Shown in pieces: positions 17,638 to 25,292 of a DNA stretch of 48,586 bases. The stretch is taken from contig JAFSMX010000003.1 of NCBI GenBank assembly GCA_017447725.1, forward strand, positions 1-48,586. The letters run 5' to 3'. This stretch comes from Bacilli bacterium. GTDB taxonomy: Bacteria > Bacillota_I > Bacilli_A > RFN20 > CAG-826. The translations under genes and the position numbers were made by a program. The stretch's first letter is position 1, and every line of letters starts with the position of its first letter. The notes under the pieces were generated by a model. That model searched no databases and was not told where the DNA came from. It saw nothing but the letters and a program-made list of their open reading frames with translations.

Positions 17638-17646
17638 TGTTAGAAT
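17638..17646 (+). promoter_or_regulatory. Extended -10 promoter of structured RNA copy A
   Basis: TG-T-TAGAAT. The same element (TG-G-TAGAAT) stands at the same distance before RNA copy B. Counting 7 nt from it gives a start at G17653, which is exactly the first base of helix P1. Confidence 0.6.
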
Positions 17647-17652
17647 ATAAGT

Positions 17653-17903
17653 GTCCAAGATATGTATTCTAAGAACATTTTGGACTAATACGTTATGTGT
17701 TAGGACGTATTAATGTGGAAAGTATTGCCCAGAGTTGTTTAAGAAAAGAGTTAAAAACACTCTCCATTCATTAGACACCACCGCTCCACACAAGTTTATC
17801 TTGAATTGAGGCCGTCACTTTGGCTGACGTAACACCACTAGTTCAGTACTAGAGATAGTAGGTGAACTAAACGGTGTTTTCGTTATGTAGTGACGGCTTT
17901 TAG
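17653..17903 (+). ncRNA. Large structured RNA, copy A (unrecognised family)
   Basis: Helices that can be drawn: P1 17653-17661/17677-17685; P3 17686-17693/17705-17712, closing the 11-nt loop TATGTGTTAGG; P4 17714-17719/17785-17790, enclosing AAGTATTGCCCAG (17720-17732) and an inner hairpin 17731-17740/17755-17763; P5 17791-17794/17800-17803; P6 17811-17818/17890-17897; P7 17831-17836/17873-17878; P8 17839-17845/17863-17869; and P9 17847-17851/17856-17860 with a GAGA tetraloop. The loop of P3, the AAGTATTGCCCAG island and the GTAACACC/GGTGTTTTC pair match copy B, while P3, P4, P5, P6 and P8 differ from it by changes that keep pairing. The 3' stem P6 is followed by TTTT. It belongs to no RNA family I can name. 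The nuclease gene follows at 17951. Confidence 0.8.
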
Positions 17904-17945
17904 TTTCCTCTAACGAAAACGTTTAATTTCAACACAAGGAGGAAA
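17904..17945 (+). promoter_or_regulatory. Anti-Shine-Dalgarno hairpin before the DUF1016 gene
   Basis: TTTCCTC (17904-17910) is perfectly complementary to GAGGAAA (17939-17945), which contains the ribosome site of the gene starting at 17951. It follows directly after the P6 stem of the RNA. If formed, it would hide the ribosome site. Confidence 0.55.
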
Positions 17946-17950
17946 TACAG

Positions 17951-18901
17951 ATGAATGAAATTGAAAAAGTCTACCTTGATGACTTACAAAAAATCAAGGA
18001 AACAATTCGTGATGCTAAAAATCAGACGTTAGTTGTCGTGAACAGCGCAGTCATTTTGACATATTACAAAATTGGTTCAATAATCAACCAACGAAAAACA
18101 TGGGGATCAAACTATGTTCGAAAATTAGCAAACGGACTCGAAGAATATGGTAAAGGATATTCATTTGACAGTCTTATGAAAATGTCCCAGTTTGCTTTAA
18201 TTTTTACACAAAACGAAATTTTGGAACAACCTGTTACAAAAATTGCTTGGGGAACATTAATAAAGATTTTTACAAAATGTTCTTCAAAAGAAGAAATGTT
18301 GTGGTATATCAATCAAACATACAAAAATAGATGGTCACGATCAGTCTTATTAAAACAATTTGAAATTGATGCTTATTCCCGAGGTATTATTGATCCAGCC
18401 ACTAGCCAAGCGGATTTTAACAAGGAAATAATTAAAGACACACTTGCTCTACACTTTGTTAGTGAAAAAGATGTCCATTCGGAAAAAGATTTAAAGGACA
18501 GACTTGTTGATAACATTATTTTGTTTCTTCAGGAGTTAGGACAAGGTTTCGCGCTTGTAGGAAGGGAATACCGACTTTCACCGCCAAATGGAAAGAATTA
18601 CTATATTGACCTGTTGATGTATCACACCAAAATCCATGCCTATGTTGTTATCGAAGTAAAGCTTGATTGCATTGAACCTTCTGATTTTGGCCAGTTGAAT
18701 TTTTATATTAATGCGGTGAACGATTTAGAAAAAACGGGTGGAGATAATGATACAGTTGGTATATTGCTTTGTAAAAACGCCAATAACTACGAAATCCAAA
18801 CAACATTAAAAGGAATAAATAATCCAATTGGAATTTCAAAATACAAACTATTAGAAGAACTACCAAGCTATCTTCAAAAACGTTTGAAAGAAATTGAATA
18901 A
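17951..18901 (+). CDS. DUF1016/YhcG-family PD-(D/E)xK nuclease
   Basis: A 316-residue protein of the DUF1016 (YhcG) family. The N-terminal helical domain covers about residues 1-165 (WGSNYVRKLANGLEE). The C-terminal PD-(D/E)xK nuclease domain covers about 165-300, with the catalytic pattern YIDLL (Asp), then VVIEVKL (Glu-x-Lys), and a conserved Gln in GQLNFYINAV. Members occur in mobile and defence islands and are thought to cut or bind DNA; the exact role is not known. It starts 47 nt after structured RNA copy A and has a strong ribosome site (AAGGAGG) that the RNA can sequester. Higher A content than its neighbours suggests acquisition. Confidence 0.85.
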   Translation: MNEIEKVYLDDLQKIKETIRDAKNQTLVVVNSAVILTYYKIGSIINQRKTWGSNYVRKLANGLEEYGKGYSFDSLMKMSQFALIFTQNEILEQPVTKIAWGTLIKIFTKCSSKEEMLWYINQTYKNRWSRSVLLKQFEIDAYSRGIIDPATSQADFNKEIIKDTLALHFVSEKDVHSEKDLKDRLVDNIILFLQELGQGFALVGREYRLSPPNGKNYYIDLLMYHTKIHAYVVIEVKLDCIEPSDFGQLNFYINAVNDLEKTGGDNDTVGILLCKNANNYEIQTTLKGINNPIGISKYKLLEELPSYLQKRLKEIE

Positions 18902-18924
18902 TTTATTAATTTGGGTCTCTTCCT

Positions 18925-18933
18925 TGGTATAAT
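18925..18933 (+). promoter_or_regulatory. Extended -10 of the aldehyde dehydrogenase/YhhN operon
   Basis: TG-G-TATAAT, perfect hexamer; AAGGAGA ribosome site follows 6 nt later and the ATG at 18954. Confidence 0.65.
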
Positions 18934-18953
18934 AAACTTAAGGAGACATAAAT

Positions 18954-20360
18954 ATGTCATACACCAAAGAAGAGATCCACTCCATCGTGGAAAGACAACG
19001 CGAGTTTTTCTTATCCAATCAAACACTTGATATTAAATGGAGAAAAGAACAACTCGTTAAATTAAAAGAAGCCATCATTAAAAACAGAGAAAAACTCGAG
19101 AAAGCTTTATACGAAGATTTGGGTCGAAGTGATGTCGAAGCTTTCTTCTGTGATATTGGTGATGTCATCATGGAGATCAATGAATGTATCCATGGATTAA
19201 ATAGATGGGCGAAACCAGAACGACATTTCTCTGGATTAGCCTGTTTTCCATCATTAACCTCAAAAGTCTATAAGATGCCTTATGGTGTATCTTTAATTAT
19301 CTCTCCATTTAACTTTCCAATTCTTCTTTCAATAGGTGTATTAGCAGCAGCAATTGCGGGAGGAAACACCGCATTAATTAAAACAAGTTCTAAATCGAAA
19401 GCGTGTACAGAAGCTCTAAAAGAAATCATTTCTGAAACATTCCCTGACAATTATATTGTCGTCATCGATGGAGGACATGATGTCGCCGATTTCTGTCTAG
19501 AAGAAAGAGTCGATAAAATCTTCTACACTGGTTCGCCTAGTGTTGGTAAACACGTGATGGAGATGGCGTCAAAGAATCTAGTTCCTGTCACTCTTGAATT
19601 AGGTGGAGAAACAGGAAACTGGTGCGTAATTAGAAAAGATGCGAATATCAAAGATGCGGCGCGAAAGATTGCTTTCTTTAAGATTTGTAATTCTGGACAA
19701 ATCTGTATCAACATCAATCAGGTTGCTGTCGCAAGTGAGATTGCTGATGAATTCGTGGAAGAATTAAAGAAAGCAATCATTAAACAAATTGGTGAAAAGC
19801 CATACTTAAATGAAGAATATCCAAAACTAATTGCTGAGAGAGCATATGAAAAGATTAGGGATGAAGCAAACGAATATAAAGATCGAATTGTCTTTGGTGG
19901 AGAAGGCGATATTAACACTTGTAAGTATTCCACCACTCTCATTTATCCAGTTGATATTCATGAACCAATTGTTCAACATGAAATATTTGGACCACTACTT
20001 CCAATCGTTAAATACGATGATGATAAAGTCGATGAGCTTTTAGATGTAATTCAAAGAAGAGAACATGGTTTAGCGTTCTATATTTTTACTAAGAATAAGA
20101 AGTGGGCAAAGAAGGTGATGTCTACTCAACAATATGGTGGAGGCTGTATTAATGAAGTTTGTCTTCACCTCATGGTCAAAGGTGTTCCGTTTAATGGAAC
20201 TGGACACTCTGGAATGGGTGCTTATCATGGGGAATGGGGATTTAGAGAATTTACTCACCCATCAACTGTTTTAATCGGAAAAACGCATTTTAATCTCTCA
20301 CTTAGAGAGCATCCATATACACCAAAGAAAAAGAAGATGTTTGCCAAATTCTTAAAATAG
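18954..20360 (+). CDS. Aldehyde dehydrogenase family protein (class 3-like)
   Basis: A 468-residue NAD(P)-dependent aldehyde dehydrogenase, oxidising aldehydes to acids; class 3-like by length and by the N-terminal part lacking a long leader. The catalytic Cys is in SGQICIN and the general-base Glu in TLELGG; the cofactor-loop motif is FTGSPSVGK in the form FYTGSPSVGK. After LELGG the usual K-(S/N)-P is replaced by ETGNW, an unusual substitution at the nucleotide site that could shift cofactor or substrate use. A good ribosome site and promoter precede it. The YhhN-type gene follows after 10 bp, suggesting an operon for lipid-derived aldehydes (plasmalogen breakdown), an inference. Confidence 0.88.
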   Translation: MSYTKEEIHSIVERQREFFLSNQTLDIKWRKEQLVKLKEAIIKNREKLEKALYEDLGRSDVEAFFCDIGDVIMEINECIHGLNRWAKPERHFSGLACFPSLTSKVYKMPYGVSLIISPFNFPILLSIGVLAAAIAGGNTALIKTSSKSKACTEALKEIISETFPDNYIVVIDGGHDVADFCLEERVDKIFYTGSPSVGKHVMEMASKNLVPVTLELGGETGNWCVIRKDANIKDAARKIAFFKICNSGQICININQVAVASEIADEFVEELKKAIIKQIGEKPYLNEEYPKLIAERAYEKIRDEANEYKDRIVFGGEGDINTCKYSTTLIYPVDIHEPIVQHEIFGPLLPIVKYDDDKVDELLDVIQRREHGLAFYIFTKNKKWAKKVMSTQQYGGGCINEVCLHLMVKGVPFNGTGHSGMGAYHGEWGFREFTHPSTVLIGKTHFNLSLREHPYTPKKKKMFAKFLK

Positions 20361-20370
20361 GAGATAAACC

Positions 20371-21081
20371 ATGGTTCCATTAATATTAGTAATCCTCTTT
20401 ATTACATTAGGGATGTTCTTCCTTGGATATTTCTTAATCGAGAAATTAAAAGGATATTGCTTAAAAGAGACTCTAATTAAATCAGTTGCTTCTCTTTTCT
20501 TTATTGCTGTAGCAACAGTTTCATTAATAGCAAAATCATCTACAAATCTCCCATTATTTGTTTTATTTGGTTTGATTTGCGGATTAGTAGGAGATGTCTT
20601 ACTTGAACTTAAATACGTGAAACGTGATTATGAAAGACATTTTACTTATGCTGGATTTGTCGCGTTCATGGTAGGTCATATTTTCTATATGAGCGGACTC
20701 ATGATGGAGTTTTATCATGGAGAAAGTATTCTCTACATTATTCTTCCAATTTTAATTGGAATCTTAATGAGCGTTGGTAACCTTGTTTTAGAAAAACCAA
20801 TGAAGTTTAACTTTGGTGAATATCGACTTGTCGTCTTTATTTATGGTTGTTTCTTGTTCAGCTTTGCTGCTTTAGTTGTTTCATTAAACATTTTAAATGG
20901 ATTTAGCTCCACCACGTTATTTGTTCTTTTAGGAGCAGGAGTCTTCTTTGTTATTTCAGATGTCATTCTATCTGGAACATATTTTGCGGTTGGAAAAGAT
21001 CGGCCAATCGATTTGATTTTAAATGCTGTGACTTATTATGTAGCGCAGTATTTAATCGCGTTCTCATTGTTCTTCTTATAA
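20371..21081 (+). CDS. YhhN/TMEM86-family membrane protein (lysoplasmalogenase-like)
   Basis: A 236-residue integral membrane protein with about eight hydrophobic helices. The family hallmarks are GDVLLE with F-x2-G and GHIFYM in the first half, and SDVILSG in the second half. Mammalian TMEM86B hydrolyses the vinyl-ether bond of lysoplasmalogens and releases a fatty aldehyde; bacterial members are mostly untested. The gene directly upstream encodes an aldehyde dehydrogenase, which would consume such an aldehyde, so the pairing is functionally sensible. AGGAG lies before the ATG. A strong terminator follows. Confidence 0.75.
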   Translation: MVPLILVILFITLGMFFLGYFLIEKLKGYCLKETLIKSVASLFFIAVATVSLIAKSSTNLPLFVLFGLICGLVGDVLLELKYVKRDYERHFTYAGFVAFMVGHIFYMSGLMMEFYHGESILYIILPILIGILMSVGNLVLEKPMKFNFGEYRLVVFIYGCFLFSFAALVVSLNILNGFSSTTLFVLLGAGVFFVISDVILSGTYFAVGKDRPIDLILNAVTYYVAQYLIAFSLFFL

Positions 21082-21095
21082 GATTTGATTAAACG

Positions 21096-21124
21096 AAAAG
21101 AACCAGGAATTGCTGGTTCTTTTT
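21096..21124. terminator. Bidirectional terminator between convergent genes
   Basis: AAAAGAACCAG and CTGGTTCTTTT form an 11-bp stem with a 6-nt loop. It contains one copy of the 18-nt AACC...GGTT palindrome seen after several genes here. Confidence 0.9.
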
Positions 21125-21142
21125 CATAAATTGCAGGAGATT

Positions 21143-21829
21143 TTACTTGTTTTGAGAAAGTTTCTTTCTTCTAATTTCTCGTAGGTAAAATAGACCAATT
21201 GCTGATCCATAAGTTATTGCAAGCATGACAATCATCATCACGAGTGTCATGAAGATTCCTTTTGATGCGAAATAATAGAAGTCATATTTTGGATCAACTT
21301 GTCCGTTATTTAGATGGGTGTAGACATTAGTAATATAGAAGATAGCATATAAACCCATCGGAACTAACGATAAGAAAGAAACTTTCCAACTCATTTCTTC
21401 TTTTGCTTCAAAGAAGATTAGAGAAATGATTCCAATCACTGGAGAAACAAGATGGAAGAAGAGGTTGGTATTTAAAAATAGTTTCCAGAAATCTAAGCCG
21501 AGTAATGGGCTTAAATATAAAATGACAGTCATGAGTGTTAATGTTGTTGTGCATGTCGCGACATATTTCACCACATAAACCCAATGCGGAATATCTTTTC
21601 TTTTATCTAAAAGAACAAGTACCTCAAAGATAACTAGAATTAATGCAGAAATAGCTAAAAAGATGTTGCTATCAACAGTAAAGAACCAGAGGAAATTATC
21701 AGTTTCAGGTGTGAGGTTTCCATTAATGCCCATCCACTGCCAACCTAATAAGGAAGTAATCATTCCAAATAGAAAAATCACAACCAGTGAGCTATTAAGA
21801 ATTAAAGAGATTTTGAGATGTTTGTTCAT
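21143..21829 (-). CDS. Pr6Pr/FAR-17a-like six-helix membrane protein
   Basis: A 228-residue protein with about six membrane helices. FTVDSN in the second loop and HLVSPVIG in the fourth helix resemble the catalytic Thr and His region of the FAR-17a/AIG1 (Pr6Pr) family, whose animal members are threonine hydrolases of fatty-acid esters. The bacterial function is not established. The start at 21829 (MNKHLK) is chosen over the ATG at 21847 because AAGAGGT lies 6 nt upstream of it and a TGATAAAAT -10 (21848-21856) overlaps the longer version. It is divergent from the DUF6273 gene, and both leaders contain GGTCAAGAGG. Confidence 0.7.
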   Translation of the reverse strand: MNKHLKISLILNSSLVVIFLFGMITSLLGWQWMGINGNLTPETDNFLWFFTVDSNIFLAISALILVIFEVLVLLDKRKDIPHWVYVVKYVATCTTTLTLMTVILYLSPLLGLDFWKLFLNTNLFFHLVSPVIGIISLIFFEAKEEMSWKVSFLSLVPMGLYAIFYITNVYTHLNNGQVDPKYDFYYFASKGIFMTLVMMIVMLAITYGSAIGLFYLREIRRKKLSQNK

Positions 21830-21835
21830 GTGTGA

Positions 21836-21914
21836 CCTCTTGACCATATTTTATCATAACAAAGTTTATTGTCTTGCTATTTATTACGCGTTATGTATAA
21901 ATAAGGTCAAGAGG
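21836..21914. promoter_or_regulatory. Inverted pair of GGTCAAGAGG leader elements in a divergent promoter region
   Basis: CCTCTTGACC (21836-21845) and GGTCAAGAGG (21905-21914) are perfect reverse complements. Each lies in the 5' leader of one of the two divergent genes and includes its Shine-Dalgarno-like AAGAGG. Confidence 0.6.
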
Positions 21915-21934
21915 GTGGATTCTAAATAATCCAC
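21915..21934 (+). promoter_or_regulatory. Leader hairpin between ribosome site and start codon
   Basis: GTGGATT (21915-21921) pairs perfectly with AATCCAC (21928-21934). The ATG at 21944 lacks a nearby ribosome site; AAGAGG ends just before the hairpin. Folding brings it to about 9 nt from the ATG, so the hairpin may be needed for translation. Confidence 0.45.
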
Positions 21935-21943
21935 AACAAACAT

Positions 21944-23473
21944 ATGAAAAAGAAAGTGCTATCGAATGTGCTTCTATTCACATCTTTAGGATGTATGGCT
22001 TTAGGAGTAGGCTTTTTACGTTCTGCCAAACCGGTCGTTAAAGAAGCCAATGCTGCGAATCCAGAATTAGAGGTTAATGACAATATTGTTGAAGTTGGAA
22101 AATATCCACAAACTGTCGTGAAATCTTCTTCTGATTTGTTTGATGATATCGTTGAGGAAGCTAAAGGCGATCTTGTTCCTGGAAAAGACTATGAACATAA
22201 GGGAGAAAAGTATCGTTATTATCCTGCTATTCACTCCACAGAAGGTGGAGGTAAATACGAAGATGGTACAAGCGTAAAAGATGGTCCAGCATTTTATAAA
22301 TTCGAACCTATAAAATGGCATTTATACAATAAAGACACGGCAAATAATAAAGCATACCTTTACGCTGTTTACATTATGGATGTTAAAGTGTTCCAACAAA
22401 ATATTGAAGTTGATGGAACTAACGAAGGTCACGTTGCTGGAAAACCAGGTGTTGCTGCAAATGATTGGGAAGAATCCACAATGAGAGAATTCCTAAATGG
22501 AGATTTCTACAATGATTCTTTCTCTGAAAGTGAAAGAAACTTTATCCTAGAAAACAGCACTAAAGCAAATAGTTCTGGAGTTAAAGTTAAAGATAAAGTT
22601 ACTTTAATGACGGCCGATGACTATACCACAAATAAAGATAAGTCAAAGTTTGAAACAAAAGCATCTGACTACGCCAAAGGTCGAACCTTACATTATCACT
22701 TCCATTCATATGATTGGTCATTCTTCTGGCTTAATTCTAAAAAAGCAGATTATGACACATTACACGTGCAATATGTACGTGCAACCGAGGTTGGAGGAGG
22801 TGGCTTTAGTCAAGCAGCAAGCACTGATAACTTTGGTGTTCGTCCATTAATTGTTTTAGATTTAACCAAGGTTAGTATTGGTAAAACTAGTGAAGAGAAG
22901 GCTAACGATGCTGCTAAGAGCGCAGAGAACGCTAACACCGCTGCATTAGTGATTGGAATTATCTTCTCAGTTCTAGGTATAGGAGGATTAATTGCCTTCT
23001 TTACATTACTGAAGAAAGGTATCCTGACATCTAAGATGTCTCCAAAGATTATCCTTACTGTTTTAGCATCAGTCCTTGTTGTCACTTCCATTGGTGTTAT
23101 TTCCTTATCCGTTAGAGCATCGAAAGAATCAGGCGGAGGAGGCGGTTCATGTACCTTAAAATATGGTTACTATGTCCAGTCAACCGAACAATATTCTGAT
23201 GCAAGCAAGAACATGGTTCAAGTTGGCTATAACTGCTGGTTAATTAAGTCGGATGGTACTGCTCGTCATGCTGCTGCTATCGAAGATGCAAAAAACGCTA
23301 GTGACTTTGACAAATACGCCGATAACTTAAAATGTACGTGGGAAAAAACAGGTTGTACTTTAAAGATTACTTATTCTGGTTACTACTCTGGTGTTGCAAC
23401 AATGACAGTGAATAGTAATGGTAAATTATATTCAGGTGGACAAGAAGTCTTCCACTGGGTGAGAGGAGAATAA
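21944..23473 (+). CDS. Membrane protein with extracytoplasmic DUF6273 domain
   Basis: A 509-residue protein. It begins with a signal or membrane helix (about 7-27). Residues about 45-310 match the DUF6273 pattern: GKYPQTV, PIKWHLY, STMREFLNGDFY and, at the end, FGVRPLIVLDL. Two membrane helices follow (about 332-356 and 366-390). A Gly5 linker leads to a C-terminal domain (about 405-509) with three Cys and many Tyr, Trp and Gly. DUF6273 is common in gut Firmicutes surface proteins and has no known activity. The zinc-ribbon membrane protein gene follows after 4 bp, and its ribosome site overlaps the end of this gene. Confidence 0.75.
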   Translation: MKKKVLSNVLLFTSLGCMALGVGFLRSAKPVVKEANAANPELEVNDNIVEVGKYPQTVVKSSSDLFDDIVEEAKGDLVPGKDYEHKGEKYRYYPAIHSTEGGGKYEDGTSVKDGPAFYKFEPIKWHLYNKDTANNKAYLYAVYIMDVKVFQQNIEVDGTNEGHVAGKPGVAANDWEESTMREFLNGDFYNDSFSESERNFILENSTKANSSGVKVKDKVTLMTADDYTTNKDKSKFETKASDYAKGRTLHYHFHSYDWSFFWLNSKKADYDTLHVQYVRATEVGGGGFSQAASTDNFGVRPLIVLDLTKVSIGKTSEEKANDAAKSAENANTAALVIGIIFSVLGIGGLIAFFTLLKKGILTSKMSPKIILTVLASVLVVTSIGVISLSVRASKESGGGGGSCTLKYGYYVQSTEQYSDASKNMVQVGYNCWLIKSDGTARHAAAIEDAKNASDFDKYADNLKCTWEKTGCTLKITYSGYYSGVATMTVNSNGKLYSGGQEVFHWVRGE

Positions 23474-23477
23474 AACG

Positions 23478-24206
23478 ATGAAATATTGTATTAATTGTGG
23501 TTCACCTCTACCAGATGAGGCGAAGTTCTGTTCTAACTGTGGTTTTAGACAACCAGAGAAAGAACAACCTAAGGTTGAAGAACCTGTCGTTGAAGAAGCT
23601 CCAGTTGTTGAAGAGCCTGTAAAAGAACCAGAACCAATCGTTGAAGAAGCTCCAGTTGTTGAGGAGGTTGTTTCTGAAGAACCAAAAGAGGAACCACAAC
23701 CTGAACCAGAGCCAGAGCCTATAGAAGAACCTCAACCAGAACCAGAACCAGTTGCTGAAGAGCAACCAGTTATCATTCCGGTTGAGGAAATAAAAGAGGA
23801 ACCTGCACCACAGCCCGAACCTCAACCAGAACCAGCTCCGGCACCAACGCCTGAGCCAGTTCCAGTTGAACAACCAAAGCTTGAAGAGTCTCCAAAGCAA
23901 GAAAAACCTGTAAAACAAAGACAAAAAACTGATTTCTCCGGTTTAATTAAACGTAAGAATTATGGACTTTGGTCAATTCTCACAGTTGGCTATTGGTTCA
24001 TCGTGATGATCTTTAACTTCATCGGCATTGGTTCCACATTCCTTGCAGTAGCGTTGTTACTTCTCTCTTTAATTGGCGGAGGATGTGCTACTGGAGGATT
24101 TGTTAAAGCTGTTAAATCAAAGAAGATTGATGATGAATTATTTATTTCATTGTCTTGTATGGTTTTAGACCTAATGGTATTTATCTCAGCTATTATCTTC
24201 TTATAA
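23478..24206 (+). CDS. Zinc-ribbon membrane protein with Glu/Pro-rich spacer
   Basis: A 242-residue protein. A zinc ribbon at the N-terminus has two CxxC pairs (CINCGS and CSNCGF within residues 4-22). Residues about 28-145 are a low-complexity Glu-Pro-Val repeat (EEAPVVEE and PEPEPEP types), which is highly acidic. The last third has two membrane helices (about 160-205 and 222-242). Zinc ribbon plus membrane proteins often act as scaffolds or sensors; no function can be assigned. Co-transcribed with the DUF6273 gene. The repeats produce an artificial open frame on the other strand that is not a gene. Confidence 0.75.
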   Translation: MKYCINCGSPLPDEAKFCSNCGFRQPEKEQPKVEEPVVEEAPVVEEPVKEPEPIVEEAPVVEEVVSEEPKEEPQPEPEPEPIEEPQPEPEPVAEEQPVIIPVEEIKEEPAPQPEPQPEPAPAPTPEPVPVEQPKLEESPKQEKPVKQRQKTDFSGLIKRKNYGLWSILTVGYWFIVMIFNFIGIGSTFLAVALLLLSLIGGGCATGGFVKAVKSKKIDDELFISLSCMVLDLMVFISAIIFL

Positions 24207-24290
24207 TTATCACAAAATAAATTAAAAACTCCTTTCAAAATATTGACAATTTTATTTATAAAATGGAGTATCACAAAAGTGCAGCACTTG
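24207..24290. other. Short spacer before RNA copy B
   Basis: Contains TTGACA (24243-24248), whose spacing does not fit the -10 of the RNA, and a GTGCAGCAC palindrome (24279-24287). No terminator is evident after the zinc-ribbon gene. Confidence 0.35.
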
Positions 24291-24299
24291 TGGTAGAAT
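24291..24299 (+). promoter_or_regulatory. Extended -10 promoter of structured RNA copy B
   Basis: TG-G-TAGAAT. The start predicted 7 nt downstream is G24306, the first base of helix P1, exactly as in copy A. Confidence 0.6.
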
Positions 24300-24305
24300 T
24301 ATTTT

Positions 24306-24629
24306 GTTCATATATTTAGACCACGGGCGCTATGAACTAGCATTAGCAAAGTCGACCATACGCAGGTAAACTGAGGCCAATGGGTATGTGGACTATCACA
24401 CTACGTGTTAGGGTGTGGTAATAGGGAAAGTATTGCCCAGTAGTGATATGAAGATATAAGTAGAAGAGGTCGCGACTTTGTAGACACTCTTATATCCAAA
24501 AAGATCATCGCGCTCCCTACAATTATTTTATAATTGAGCATGTGGCCATCACAAGGATGATGTAACACCAGTAGTTACGGGACTTAGTCGATAACTACAA
24601 AAGGTGTTTTCATTATGGTGATGGCTTTT
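24306..24629 (+). ncRNA. Large structured RNA, copy B (unrecognised family)
   Basis: Helices: P1 24306-24312/24331-24337; P2, absent in copy A, 24351-24361/24384-24393; P3 24394-24401/24413-24420 with loop TACGTGTTAGG; P4 24422-24427/24514-24519 with AAGTATTGCCCAG at 24428-24440 and an inner hairpin 24453-24460/24489-24496; P5 24520-24526/24530-24536; P6 24545-24552/24618-24625; P7 24564-24569/24603-24608; and P8 24571-24577/24592-24598. The paired segments differ in sequence from copy A but keep complementarity, for example P6 GCCATCAC/GTGATGGC against GCCGTCAC/GTGACGGC. About 73 nt longer than copy A, mostly from P2 and the inner part of P4. The unknown 117-residue ORF follows. Confidence 0.8.
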
Positions 24630-24634
24630 ATTAT

Positions 24635-24672
24635 CTCCTTTTGAAGGCACCGCTACTGTCTAAAGAAAGGAG
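24635..24672 (+). promoter_or_regulatory. Anti-Shine-Dalgarno hairpin before the 117-residue ORF
   Basis: CTCCTTT (24635-24641) is perfectly complementary to AAAGGAG (24666-24672), the ribosome site of the ORF at 24681. Same arrangement as after copy A, although the sequences of the two hairpins differ. Confidence 0.55.
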
Positions 24673-24680
24673 GAACTAAT

Positions 24681-25034
24681 ATGCCTTTTAAAAACTACAA
24701 CGGGCCAGACAAGTACCATTTTAGAATATATAAAAAGGGAAAGTCTCATCCATTTATCGTTGCGGTAGTCGAAGAAACAGAAATTGACGGAAAAATGTAT
24801 CTTTCTGGATACATGTTTACTCATTCTGTATTAAGAGTTCTTAGTAAGCCTAACGACTACATAAAAATGGTAGCAAATCCTAATCCTAATGATGATGCAG
24901 AATCGTTTTTATGTATAAGAAGAGTGTCGCATGCTGAAGCTAATGCATTTTCAAAGCCATATAACAATTGGCATTTGTCAAAAGAAGATGAAAAAACGAT
25001 TGATGAATTAGAGAAAAAATATTTTTCTAAATAA
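24681..25034 (+). CDS. Unrecognised 117-residue protein downstream of RNA copy B
   Basis: I do not recognise this protein. It is soluble, rich in Lys, Tyr, Asn and Pro, and has an alternating pattern in residues about 10-65 (YHFRIYKKG, FIVAVVEE, YLSGYMFTHS) suggesting a small beta-barrel. NPNPNDDAES and FSKPYNNWHLSKEDEKTID follow, the latter a likely C-terminal helix. Size and fold type would suit a toxin-like or RNA-binding protein, but no catalytic set can be named. A strong ribosome site (AAAGGAGG) is present, which RNA copy B can mask. It is followed at once by a terminator, so RNA and ORF form one self-contained unit. Confidence 0.7.
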   Translation: MPFKNYNGPDKYHFRIYKKGKSHPFIVAVVEETEIDGKMYLSGYMFTHSVLRVLSKPNDYIKMVANPNPNDDAESFLCIRRVSHAEANAFSKPYNNWHLSKEDEKTIDELEKKYFSK

Positions 25035-25036
25035 TC

Positions 25037-25087
25037 AAAAAAAGATCCGCTTTATGGCTTTCATGTCATAATTGATGGATCTTTTTT
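25037..25087 (+). terminator. Intrinsic terminator of the RNA B-ORF unit
   Basis: A7-GATCC pairs with GGATC-T6; the 28-nt loop has an inner ATGGC/GTCAT stem. Confidence 0.85.
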
Positions 25088-25092
25088 ATTTA

Positions 25093-25180
25093 CAACTAGA
25101 CGCTTCTCCTAAGAAGCTGGGTTTCCCACGAAGACTAGTTGCTATCAACGGATTGCCCTATACTTGGCCAGGATACCGTT
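25093..25180. other. Compact three-way-junction-like element of unknown nature
   Basis: CAACTAG (25093-25099) pairs with CTAGTTG (25135-25141) and encloses two perfect hairpins, GCTTCT-CCTA-AGAAGC (25102-25117) and TGGG-TTT-CCCA (25118-25128). Further on, AACGG (25147-25151) pairs with CCGTT (25176-25180). No ORF. It may be a remnant of an insertion-sequence end (IS200/IS605 right ends carry such hairpins) or a small RNA. I cannot decide. Confidence 0.45.
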
Positions 25181-25218
25181 AGAATCATTAGAAATGTATT
25201 AAATAATTAATACAATTT

Positions 25219-25292
25219 TGGCGGGGGTGGCAGGAATCGAACCCACATTAGCGGTTTTGGAGACCGTTGTACTACCATTGTACGACACCCCC
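25219..25292 (-). tRNA. tRNA-Trp (anticodon CCA)
   Basis: The 7-bp acceptor stem is GGGGGTG/CACCCCC, discriminator G, with encoded CCA (25219-25221). The anticodon loop is CTCCAAA with anticodon CCA, and the T-arm is GGGTTCGATTCC-like. This is the only Trp tRNA visible; it reads UGG only, in line with TGA serving as stop. Confidence 0.95.

What the first reader, a model, noticed from the sequence alone, without database searches (positions are those of the whole stretch)
17653..24629. Two copies of an undescribed-looking structured RNA with compensatory base changes
Seen directly: copies A (17653-17903) and B (24306-24629) share islands TAYGTGTTAGG, AAGTATTGCCCAG and GTAACACC...GGTGTTTTC in the same order. 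Between them, at least five helices differ in sequence yet keep pairing: P3 (TAATACGT/ACGTATTA against TATCACAC/GTGTGGTA), P4 (TGTGGA/TCCACA against TAGGGA/TCCCTA), P5, P6 (GCCGTCAC/GTGACGGC against GCCATCAC/GTGATGGC) and P8 (TAGTTCA/TGAACTA against GTAGTTA/TAACTAC). Both begin at the base predicted from an identical extended -10. Such covariation in two diverged copies is strong evidence for a functional RNA. I cannot match it to a known family.
Basis: partly seen in the sequence, partly recalled or inferred. Interest (0 to 1): 0.92.

Follow-up and report, generated by a model that had tools for sequence, protein, structure and literature searches.

The report
Swappable RNA leader before toxin genes
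The two copies are full-length examples of an RNA family that was known only as a fragment; it forms the start of messages for unrelated toxin-like and candidate phage-defence genes, hides their ribosome-binding site, and appears able to flip into a second shape that would turn the gene on.

Summary
The claim of no known family fails: both match Rfam RF02941 (COG3943 RNA): B 83.1 bits; A 67.3, just below threshold.

Rfam holds only a 108-nt middle piece. A model built from the 5' half alone finds the same loci (65 of 224 genomes of the bacterial family; RF02941 finds 64). The real element is a 298-375-nt leader running from promoter to start codon.

It precedes unrelated genes: DUF1016/YhcG nuclease (copy A), a MazF-fold protein (copy B), RhuM-Fic, BrnT-BrnA, KilA-N. 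Cargo changes at least 27 times on the RNA tree; one genome has the same leader before two different cargos.

The Shine-Dalgarno is buried in a covarying hairpin in 94% of 88 leaders (mean unpaired probability 0.05; 0.53 in control genes). Two mutually exclusive sets of helices are both supported: terminator-like stem plus buried SD, versus a local hairpin plus an anti-sequestor that frees the SD.

Best reading: a cis-acting, default-off RNA switch, reused as a plug-in controller of toxin/defence genes in gut Bacilli. The signal is unknown; no expression data were available.

The parts
17641..17646 (+). Copy A: -10 hexamer TAGAAT of an extended -10 promoter (TG at 17638-17639)
   Evidence: sequence; a -10-like hexamer at the corresponding place upstream of most homologues
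17653..17950 (+). Copy A: whole leader RNA, 298 nt, to the base before the DUF1016 start codon
17653..17685 (+). Copy A: P1, GTCCAAGAT (17653-17661) with ATTTTGGAC (17677-17685)
17686..17712 (+). Copy A: P3, TAATACGT / ACGTATTA, loop with near-invariant GTGTTAGG (17697-17704)
17714..17790 (+). Copy A: P4, TGTGGA (17714-17719) with TCCACA (17785-17790), enclosing AAGTATTGCCCAG (17720-17732) and P5
17780..17877 (+). Copy A: stretch matched by Rfam RF02941
   Evidence: 67.3 bits, E 5e-12, gathering 71.8
17810..17903 (+). Copy A: terminator-like stem: P6 GCCGTCAC (17811-17818) with GTGACGGC (17890-17897) then a U-run; inside it strand a GTAACACC (17829-17836), P9 (17839-17869), strand b GGTGTTTTCGTTA (17873-17885)
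17904..17945 (+). Copy A: SD-sequestering hairpin P10, TTTCCTC (17904-17910) with GAGGAAA (17939-17945); strand c TAACGAAAAC (17911-17920) can pair with strand b instead
17951..18901 (+). Copy A cargo: DUF1016_N + YhcG_C PD-(D/E)XK nuclease, PADLOC candidate PDC-S02
24294..24299 (+). Copy B: -10 hexamer TAGAAT with TG before it
24306..24680 (+). Copy B: whole leader RNA, 375 nt, to the base before the MazF-like start codon
24306..24393 (+). Copy B: P1, GTTCATATATTTA (24306-24318) with TGGGTATGTGGAC (24381-24393)
   Evidence: same P1 strands as G226_C3_116725
24394..24420 (+). Copy B: P3, TATCACAC / GTGTGGTA, loop GTGTTAGG (24405-24412)
24422..24519 (+). Copy B: P4, TAGGGA (24422-24427) with TCCCTA (24514-24519), enclosing AAAGTATTGCCCAG and P5
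24509..24607 (+). Copy B: stretch matched by Rfam RF02941
   Evidence: 83.1 bits
24544..24629 (+). Copy B: terminator-like stem: P6 GCCATCAC (24545-24552) with GTGATGGC (24618-24625) then UUUU; alternative P7 partner TGATG (24558-24562); strand a GTAACACC (24562-24569), P9 (24571-24598), strand b GGTGTTTTCA (24603-24612)
24635..24673 (+). Copy B: SD-sequestering hairpin P10, CTCCTTT (24635-24641) with AAAGGAG (24666-24672), SD AGGAGG 24668-24673; strand c TGAAGGCACC (24642-24651), complementary to strand b over all 10 bases
24681..25034 (+). Copy B cargo: 117-aa protein, no Pfam/NCBIfam match, predicted MazF/CcdB fold

Best explanation
A cis-acting regulatory leader, placed in front of different toxin-like or candidate defence genes, that keeps them off unless a signal changes its fold. 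Shown by sequence evidence: (1) one RNA runs from a promoter to the start codon, with P1 closing a 5' domain (P3, P4, P5). (2) Its 3' end holds a terminator-like stem (P6-P9 plus U-run) and then a hairpin (P10) that buries the Shine-Dalgarno. (3) Strand b pairs either with strand a upstream, inside the terminator-like stem, or with strand c downstream; strand P6a pairs either with P6b or with a local GAYG (P7). The two sets are mutually exclusive, and P6, P7, P8' (b:c) and P10 each covary. (4) The same leader serves unrelated genes. Inferred: P6+P8+P10 is the default OFF state (terminator formed, SD hidden). P7+P8' is the ON state (terminator broken, SD exposed), stabilised by whatever the 5' domain senses, perhaps through docking of the P3 loop GUGUUA onto strand a UAACAC. 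The signal and the direction of the response are not known.
For: SD sequestered in 94% of 88 leaders, mean unpaired probability 0.05; 127 control genes with an SD from the same loci 0.53. Start codon a median 72 nt after the Rfam part, 5-95% range 59-79. P8' b:c pairs in 90.5% of cells vs 48-59% when slid, own vs swapped z 10.8; P6 z 10.2; P7 z 8.9; P10 z 5.7; parallel controls lower. OFF -50.0, ON -35.1 kcal/mol on average; SD unpaired 0.03 vs 0.64. The 5'-half model R1 and RF02941 hit the same loci, 65 and 64 genomes. Cargo changes at least 27 times on 80 labelled tips (shuffled labels 30-38) and G506 carries the same leader before DUF1016 and before RhuM-Fic. Two loci of a sister family not used in the analysis show the same plan.
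Against: No expression data. ON is about 15 kcal/mol less stable by nearest-neighbour energies, so it needs a ligand, protein, tertiary contact or folding kinetics, none shown. The a:b helix is nearly invariant, so covariation says little about it. The P3-loop/strand-a contact cannot be tested by covariation. The terminator is not called by the simple scan, whose loop limit is 8. The swap tests are not phylogeny-corrected; parallel controls show some relatedness signal. In the BrnT loci the gene starts well beyond the leader's SD and seems to have its own operator-like repeats (by eye).
Confidence: 0.72

Rival explanations
1. Type III-like toxin-antitoxin or AbiF-like unit: the RNA released at the terminator binds and neutralises the protein encoded behind it, and read-through sets the dose.
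For: Same order as type III loci (promoter, RNA, Rho-independent terminator, toxin; PMC5086642). Copy B's cargo has the MazF-type fold shared by ToxN/CptN (one search lists CptN 4rmo Z 7.7 and ToxN 4ato Z 5.6). AbiF RNA RCd22 neutralises its toxin by direct binding (PMC12373285). No protein antitoxin gene beside the MazF-like or DUF1016 cargo in the window.
Against: The same RNA stands before at least four unrelated protein families and cargo switches almost freely on the RNA tree. No tandem repeats. Covarying helices run past the terminator into the ribosome-binding site, which an antitoxin RNA does not need.
Confidence: 0.12
2. A static low-expression leader: the fold simply keeps dangerous genes at low basal expression, with no signal and no switching; b:c complementarity stabilises an H-type pseudoknot at the SD rather than an ON state.
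For: OFF is far more stable than ON; the cargos are toxin-like, for which low expression is useful.
Against: A large 5' domain with P1, P3, P4, P5 and near-invariant loops is not needed for that; P6/P7 share a strand and both covary.
Confidence: 0.25
3. A free-standing small RNA acting in trans, as Rfam's type 'Gene; sRNA' implies, with neighbouring genes incidental.
For: Own promoter, terminator-like end, Rfam classification.
Against: Constant spacing to the start codon, SD sequestration and pairing across the terminator into the leader tail, and cargo confined to a few toxin/defence-like families.
Confidence: 0.05
4. A mobile cassette whose DNA ends coincide with the RNA, so that structure reflects mobility rather than regulation.
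For: Presence/absence between close relatives: G432 lacks copy A plus its gene between conserved flanks (adjacent aldehyde dehydrogenase 96% identical), G431 lacks 21830-25029 with copy B. Cargo swapping.
Against: No transposase, integrase or consistent ends found; no match in phage or plasmid records; the G432 site seems to keep a trace of the leader tail, as if deleted; SD-linked covariation is unexplained.
Confidence: 0.08

Closest known systems
Rfam RF02941 COG3943 RNA
   Same: Both copies match its full 108 positions; the local hairpins, P7, a:b and P9 are in its consensus.
   Different: Rfam's model lacks P1, P3, P4/P5, the long-range P6, the U-run, b:c and the SD-sequestering P10, and is typed as sRNA; here it is about 300-375 nt and reaches the start codon.
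Riboswitches and attenuators with terminator and SD-sequestration platforms (e.g. SAM-II metA in PMC9373788)
   Same: 5' domain, alternative pairings, terminator-like stem, SD hidden in one state; one leader can use both levels.
   Different: No ligand known; the regulated genes are toxin-like or defence candidates rather than a metabolic pathway; cargo is swapped freely.
Type III toxin-antitoxin (ToxIN, CptIN, TenpIN) and AbiF-RCd22
   Same: RNA, terminator, then toxin under one promoter; copy B's cargo has the MazF-type fold.
   Different: No tandem repeats; same RNA before unrelated proteins; pairing extends into the SD.
PADLOC candidates PDC-S02 (DUF1016) and PDC-S23 (RhuM-Fic); BrnT/BrnA
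   Same: Cargo genes belong to these families.
   Different: Searches of the held papers gave no link of these families to a structured RNA leader; these papers are only part of the literature.

Membership tests
Rfam RF02941 COG3943 | covariance-model score at or above the gathering score 71.8 | tested here: met
   B 83.1 bits; A 67.3, E 5e-12, below threshold but full length; most of the homologues analysed score above it
Rfam RF02941 COG3943 | typed 'Gene; sRNA', i.e. an independent small RNA | tested here: inconclusive
   Spacing, SD sequestration and pairing into the RBS argue for cis action; a released RNA cannot be excluded without RNA-seq
Riboswitch / attenuator (functional kind) | mutually exclusive covarying structures linking a 5' domain to terminator and SD | tested here: met
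   P6/P7 and P8/P8' share strands; covariation for P6, P7, P8', P10; the physical link to the 5' domain itself is inferred
Riboswitch / attenuator (functional kind) | binds a small-molecule ligand | not testable with these tools
   needs in-line probing or equivalent
Type III toxin-antitoxin | promoter, RNA, Rho-independent terminator, toxin gene in that order | tested here: met
   copy B layout; MazF-fold cargo; terminator by structure and U-run only
Type III toxin-antitoxin | antitoxin RNA made of tandem repeats | tested here: not met
   none in copy B; only an AT-rich 19-bp row upstream of copy A
Type III toxin-antitoxin | toxin of the ToxN, CptN or TenpN family by sequence | tested here: not met
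   no Pfam or NCBIfam match for the 117-aa protein; no significant PDB sequence match
MazF/CcdB toxin superfamily (copy B cargo) | fold over the whole domain | tested here: met
   AF2 pLDDT 88; Foldseek ranks 1-6 MazF, best E 0.045; VIA Z 9.0 over 102 residues, ranks 1-44 all MazF/CcdB/CptN/ToxN
MazF/CcdB toxin superfamily (copy B cargo) | endoribonuclease or gyrase-poison activity | not testable with these tools
   fold alone does not show activity

The most novel reading that the evidence does not exclude
A new class of RNA sensor that detects a cell-wide distress signal (for instance phage take-over, a nucleotide alarmone or translation failure) and serves as a general plug-in control for toxins and defence proteins: docking of its 5' domain on strand a stops termination and lets strand b pair with c to expose the Shine-Dalgarno, so unrelated effectors are armed by one RNA circuit.
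Probability: 0.3. Interest if true: 0.92.

Novelty: new variant of a known kind. Interest (0 to 1): 0.73.

Why it matters
An orphan Rfam fragment gains its full extent, a cis-acting role and a testable mechanism. If right, one RNA switch has been reused in front of several unrelated toxin-like and candidate defence genes, each otherwise unexplained. It would make the question 'what tells a solo toxin or defence protein to switch on?' directly testable: finding the ligand or factor of one leader would answer it for all its cargos.

Tried and rejected
DNA pattern for the 3' half in genome contigs and viral contigs: too loose; record titles with strong context are all Bacilli/Erysipelotrichaceae/Bacillales/Mollicutes or similar gut MAGs, others look like chance. 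Pattern for the 5' half in viral contigs gave 120 stretches; R1 confirmed none of those scanned, only L267 from the first scan. Phage and plasmid records: no match for leader B or its protein. Extra helix P7b (GAYG with the bases after b): weak (z 1.8), not claimed. P3 loop with strand a: perfect 6-bp complement but both near-invariant, kept as a candidate only. Literature: no paper held names RF02941 or a COG3943 RNA. Promoter/terminator scan: no terminator called because the hairpin loop exceeds its limit. Free-standing sRNA, type III antitoxin and transposon readings weighed as rivals.

Full report
Observation. Rfam 15 gives one gathering-level match over copy B (RF02941 COG3943, 24509-24607, 83.1 bits) and a full-length sub-threshold match over copy A (17780-17877, 67.3 bits, E 5e-12).

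Homologues. RF02941 was found in 64 of 224 genomes of the window's bacterial family, in 66 of 279 of its order, two of them in a sister family, and in no genome outside its own family in a sample of 392 from its phylum. I fetched and oriented 90 loci plus the two window copies. A covariance model made only from the 5' domain (R1; it overlaps the Rfam region by 14 nt) finds the same loci, in 65 of 224 genomes. The two halves are one RNA.

Structure. P3 and P4 were counted on 41 diverse sequences: 99.1% of cells paired, covariation 0.683 against 0.231 after shuffling, and no slid register comes near. P4 alone takes the forms TGTGGA/TCCACA, TAGGGA/TCCCTA, TGCGGA/TCCGCA, TGAGGA/TCCTCA and TGGGGA/TCCCCA. 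P5, the hairpin before GGCC, P6, P7 and P9 score higher with their own partner than with partners from other sequences (z 9-14), more than a parallel-pairing control in each case. P1, found here, joins the first transcribed bases to the strand just before P3 (z 15.6).

The 3' end. The element does not stop at the U-run. After it comes CTCC(TTT), then a strand c (YGARRRCACC), a spacer, the Shine-Dalgarno and the start codon, at a nearly constant distance (median 72 nt from the Rfam end). The hairpin P10 formed by the CTCC arm and the SD buries the SD in 94% of 88 leaders. Mean unpaired probability is 0.05, against 0.53 for 127 other genes with an SD from the same loci. The arms change together: CTCCTTT/AAAGGAG in B, TTTCCTC/GAGGAAA in A.

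Two alternative folds. Strand b (GGTGTTTTCR) pairs with strand a (GNAACACC) inside the terminator-like stem, or with strand c downstream of it. The b:c helix pairs in 90.5% of cells against 48-59% when slid, with compensatory types at its last two pairs (CG/TA/AT and AT/GC/TA) and z 10.8. P6a pairs with P6b just before the U-run, or with the local GAYG (P7). P6+P8+P10 averages -50.0 kcal/mol and hides the SD; P7+P8' averages -35.1 and exposes it. The default is therefore OFF, and ON needs help. The near-invariant P3 loop GUGUUA is a perfect complement of UAACAC in strand a and could be the link; this is inference, since neither side varies enough to test.

Cargo. The gene behind the leader is DUF1016/YhcG PD-(D/E)XK nuclease (about 42 leaders), a small protein like the one behind copy B (about 20), RhuM with a Fic domain (at least 11), BrnT-BrnA (4 in the tree set), DUF4314 or KilA-N. 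DUF1016 and RhuM-Fic are PADLOC single-gene defence candidates PDC-S02 and PDC-S23. The 117-aa protein has no family match, but its AF2 model (pLDDT 88) aligns with MazF toxins over its whole length (Foldseek best E 0.045, VIA Z 9.0). Cargo changes at least 27 times on a tree of the RNA, close to random (30-38 with shuffled labels). Genome G506 has the same leader before DUF1016 and before RhuM-Fic; G356 has two near-identical leaders in tandem before DUF1016 and the MazF-like gene. An RNA partner specific to one protein would not behave so; a shared regulator would.

Held-out check. Two loci in a sister family, fetched afterwards, show the same -10, P1, P3, P6 with U-run, buried SD and cargo of the same families (DUF1016; DUF4314).

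Surroundings. In relative G432, conserved flanks (aldehyde dehydrogenase protein 96% identical) lack copy A and its gene; in G431 the stretch 21830-25029 with copy B is missing. The units are gained and lost. No phage or plasmid record matched; one IMG/VR contig carries a copy.

Comparison. It works like a two-level attenuator or riboswitch. Membership in RF02941 is met. Membership in type III toxin-antitoxin is not met: no tandem repeats, toxin not of those sequence families, same RNA before unrelated cargo (definition from PMC5086642). The AbiF-RCd22 system (PMC12373285) shows that an RNA upstream of a toxin can neutralise it directly, so that rival stays open at about 0.12.

Limits. All evidence is computational. 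The swap tests are not corrected for phylogeny, though parallel and unrelated-strand controls are weaker. The signal is unknown. The genomes appear to be mostly metagenome-assembled (record titles).

Noticed in passing
Homologues, tip of P5 (e.g. window 24455-24490): The tip of P5 comes in at least four recurrent sequence forms (GGTCG..AGACG, GGCGACC..GGACACGGTC, AACTCTCC..GGGATAAG, AACGTTCCG..CGGGGTC) that do not follow the cargo family by eye; possibly alternative receptor or binding modules.
   Followed up: no
L437:1-400 (G419:C62): A truncated leader: the 5' domain ends near CTCGCTC and is fused directly to what looks like the C-terminal end of a RhuM-Fic gene, a deletion relic.
   Followed up: partly
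window 24681-25292: The MazF-like gene lies next to a tRNA gene (25222-25292, minus strand), and the whole unit with two upstream genes is absent in G431, whose sequence resumes at 25030.
   Followed up: partly
L048, L049, L056, L091: In BrnT-BrnA loci the BrnT start lies about 45 nt beyond the leader's SD, with AT-rich TAATTA repeats between that look like a BrnA operator and promoter; the leader may no longer control this cargo.
   Followed up: no
L094, L096, L108, L123 and similar: A DUF4314 small gene often stands between the leader and DUF1016, and is fused to it in G432_C10.
   Followed up: partly
L069 and L101: Tandem leader units: G356 has DUF1016 and MazF-like units side by side with near-identical leaders; G470 has two leader-DUF1016 units 1.6 kb apart.
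   Followed up: yes
L267:9884-10013: One IMG/VR contig (3300032007_003637) carries a good copy of the 5' domain; whether it is a phage or host sequence was not settled.
   Followed up: partly
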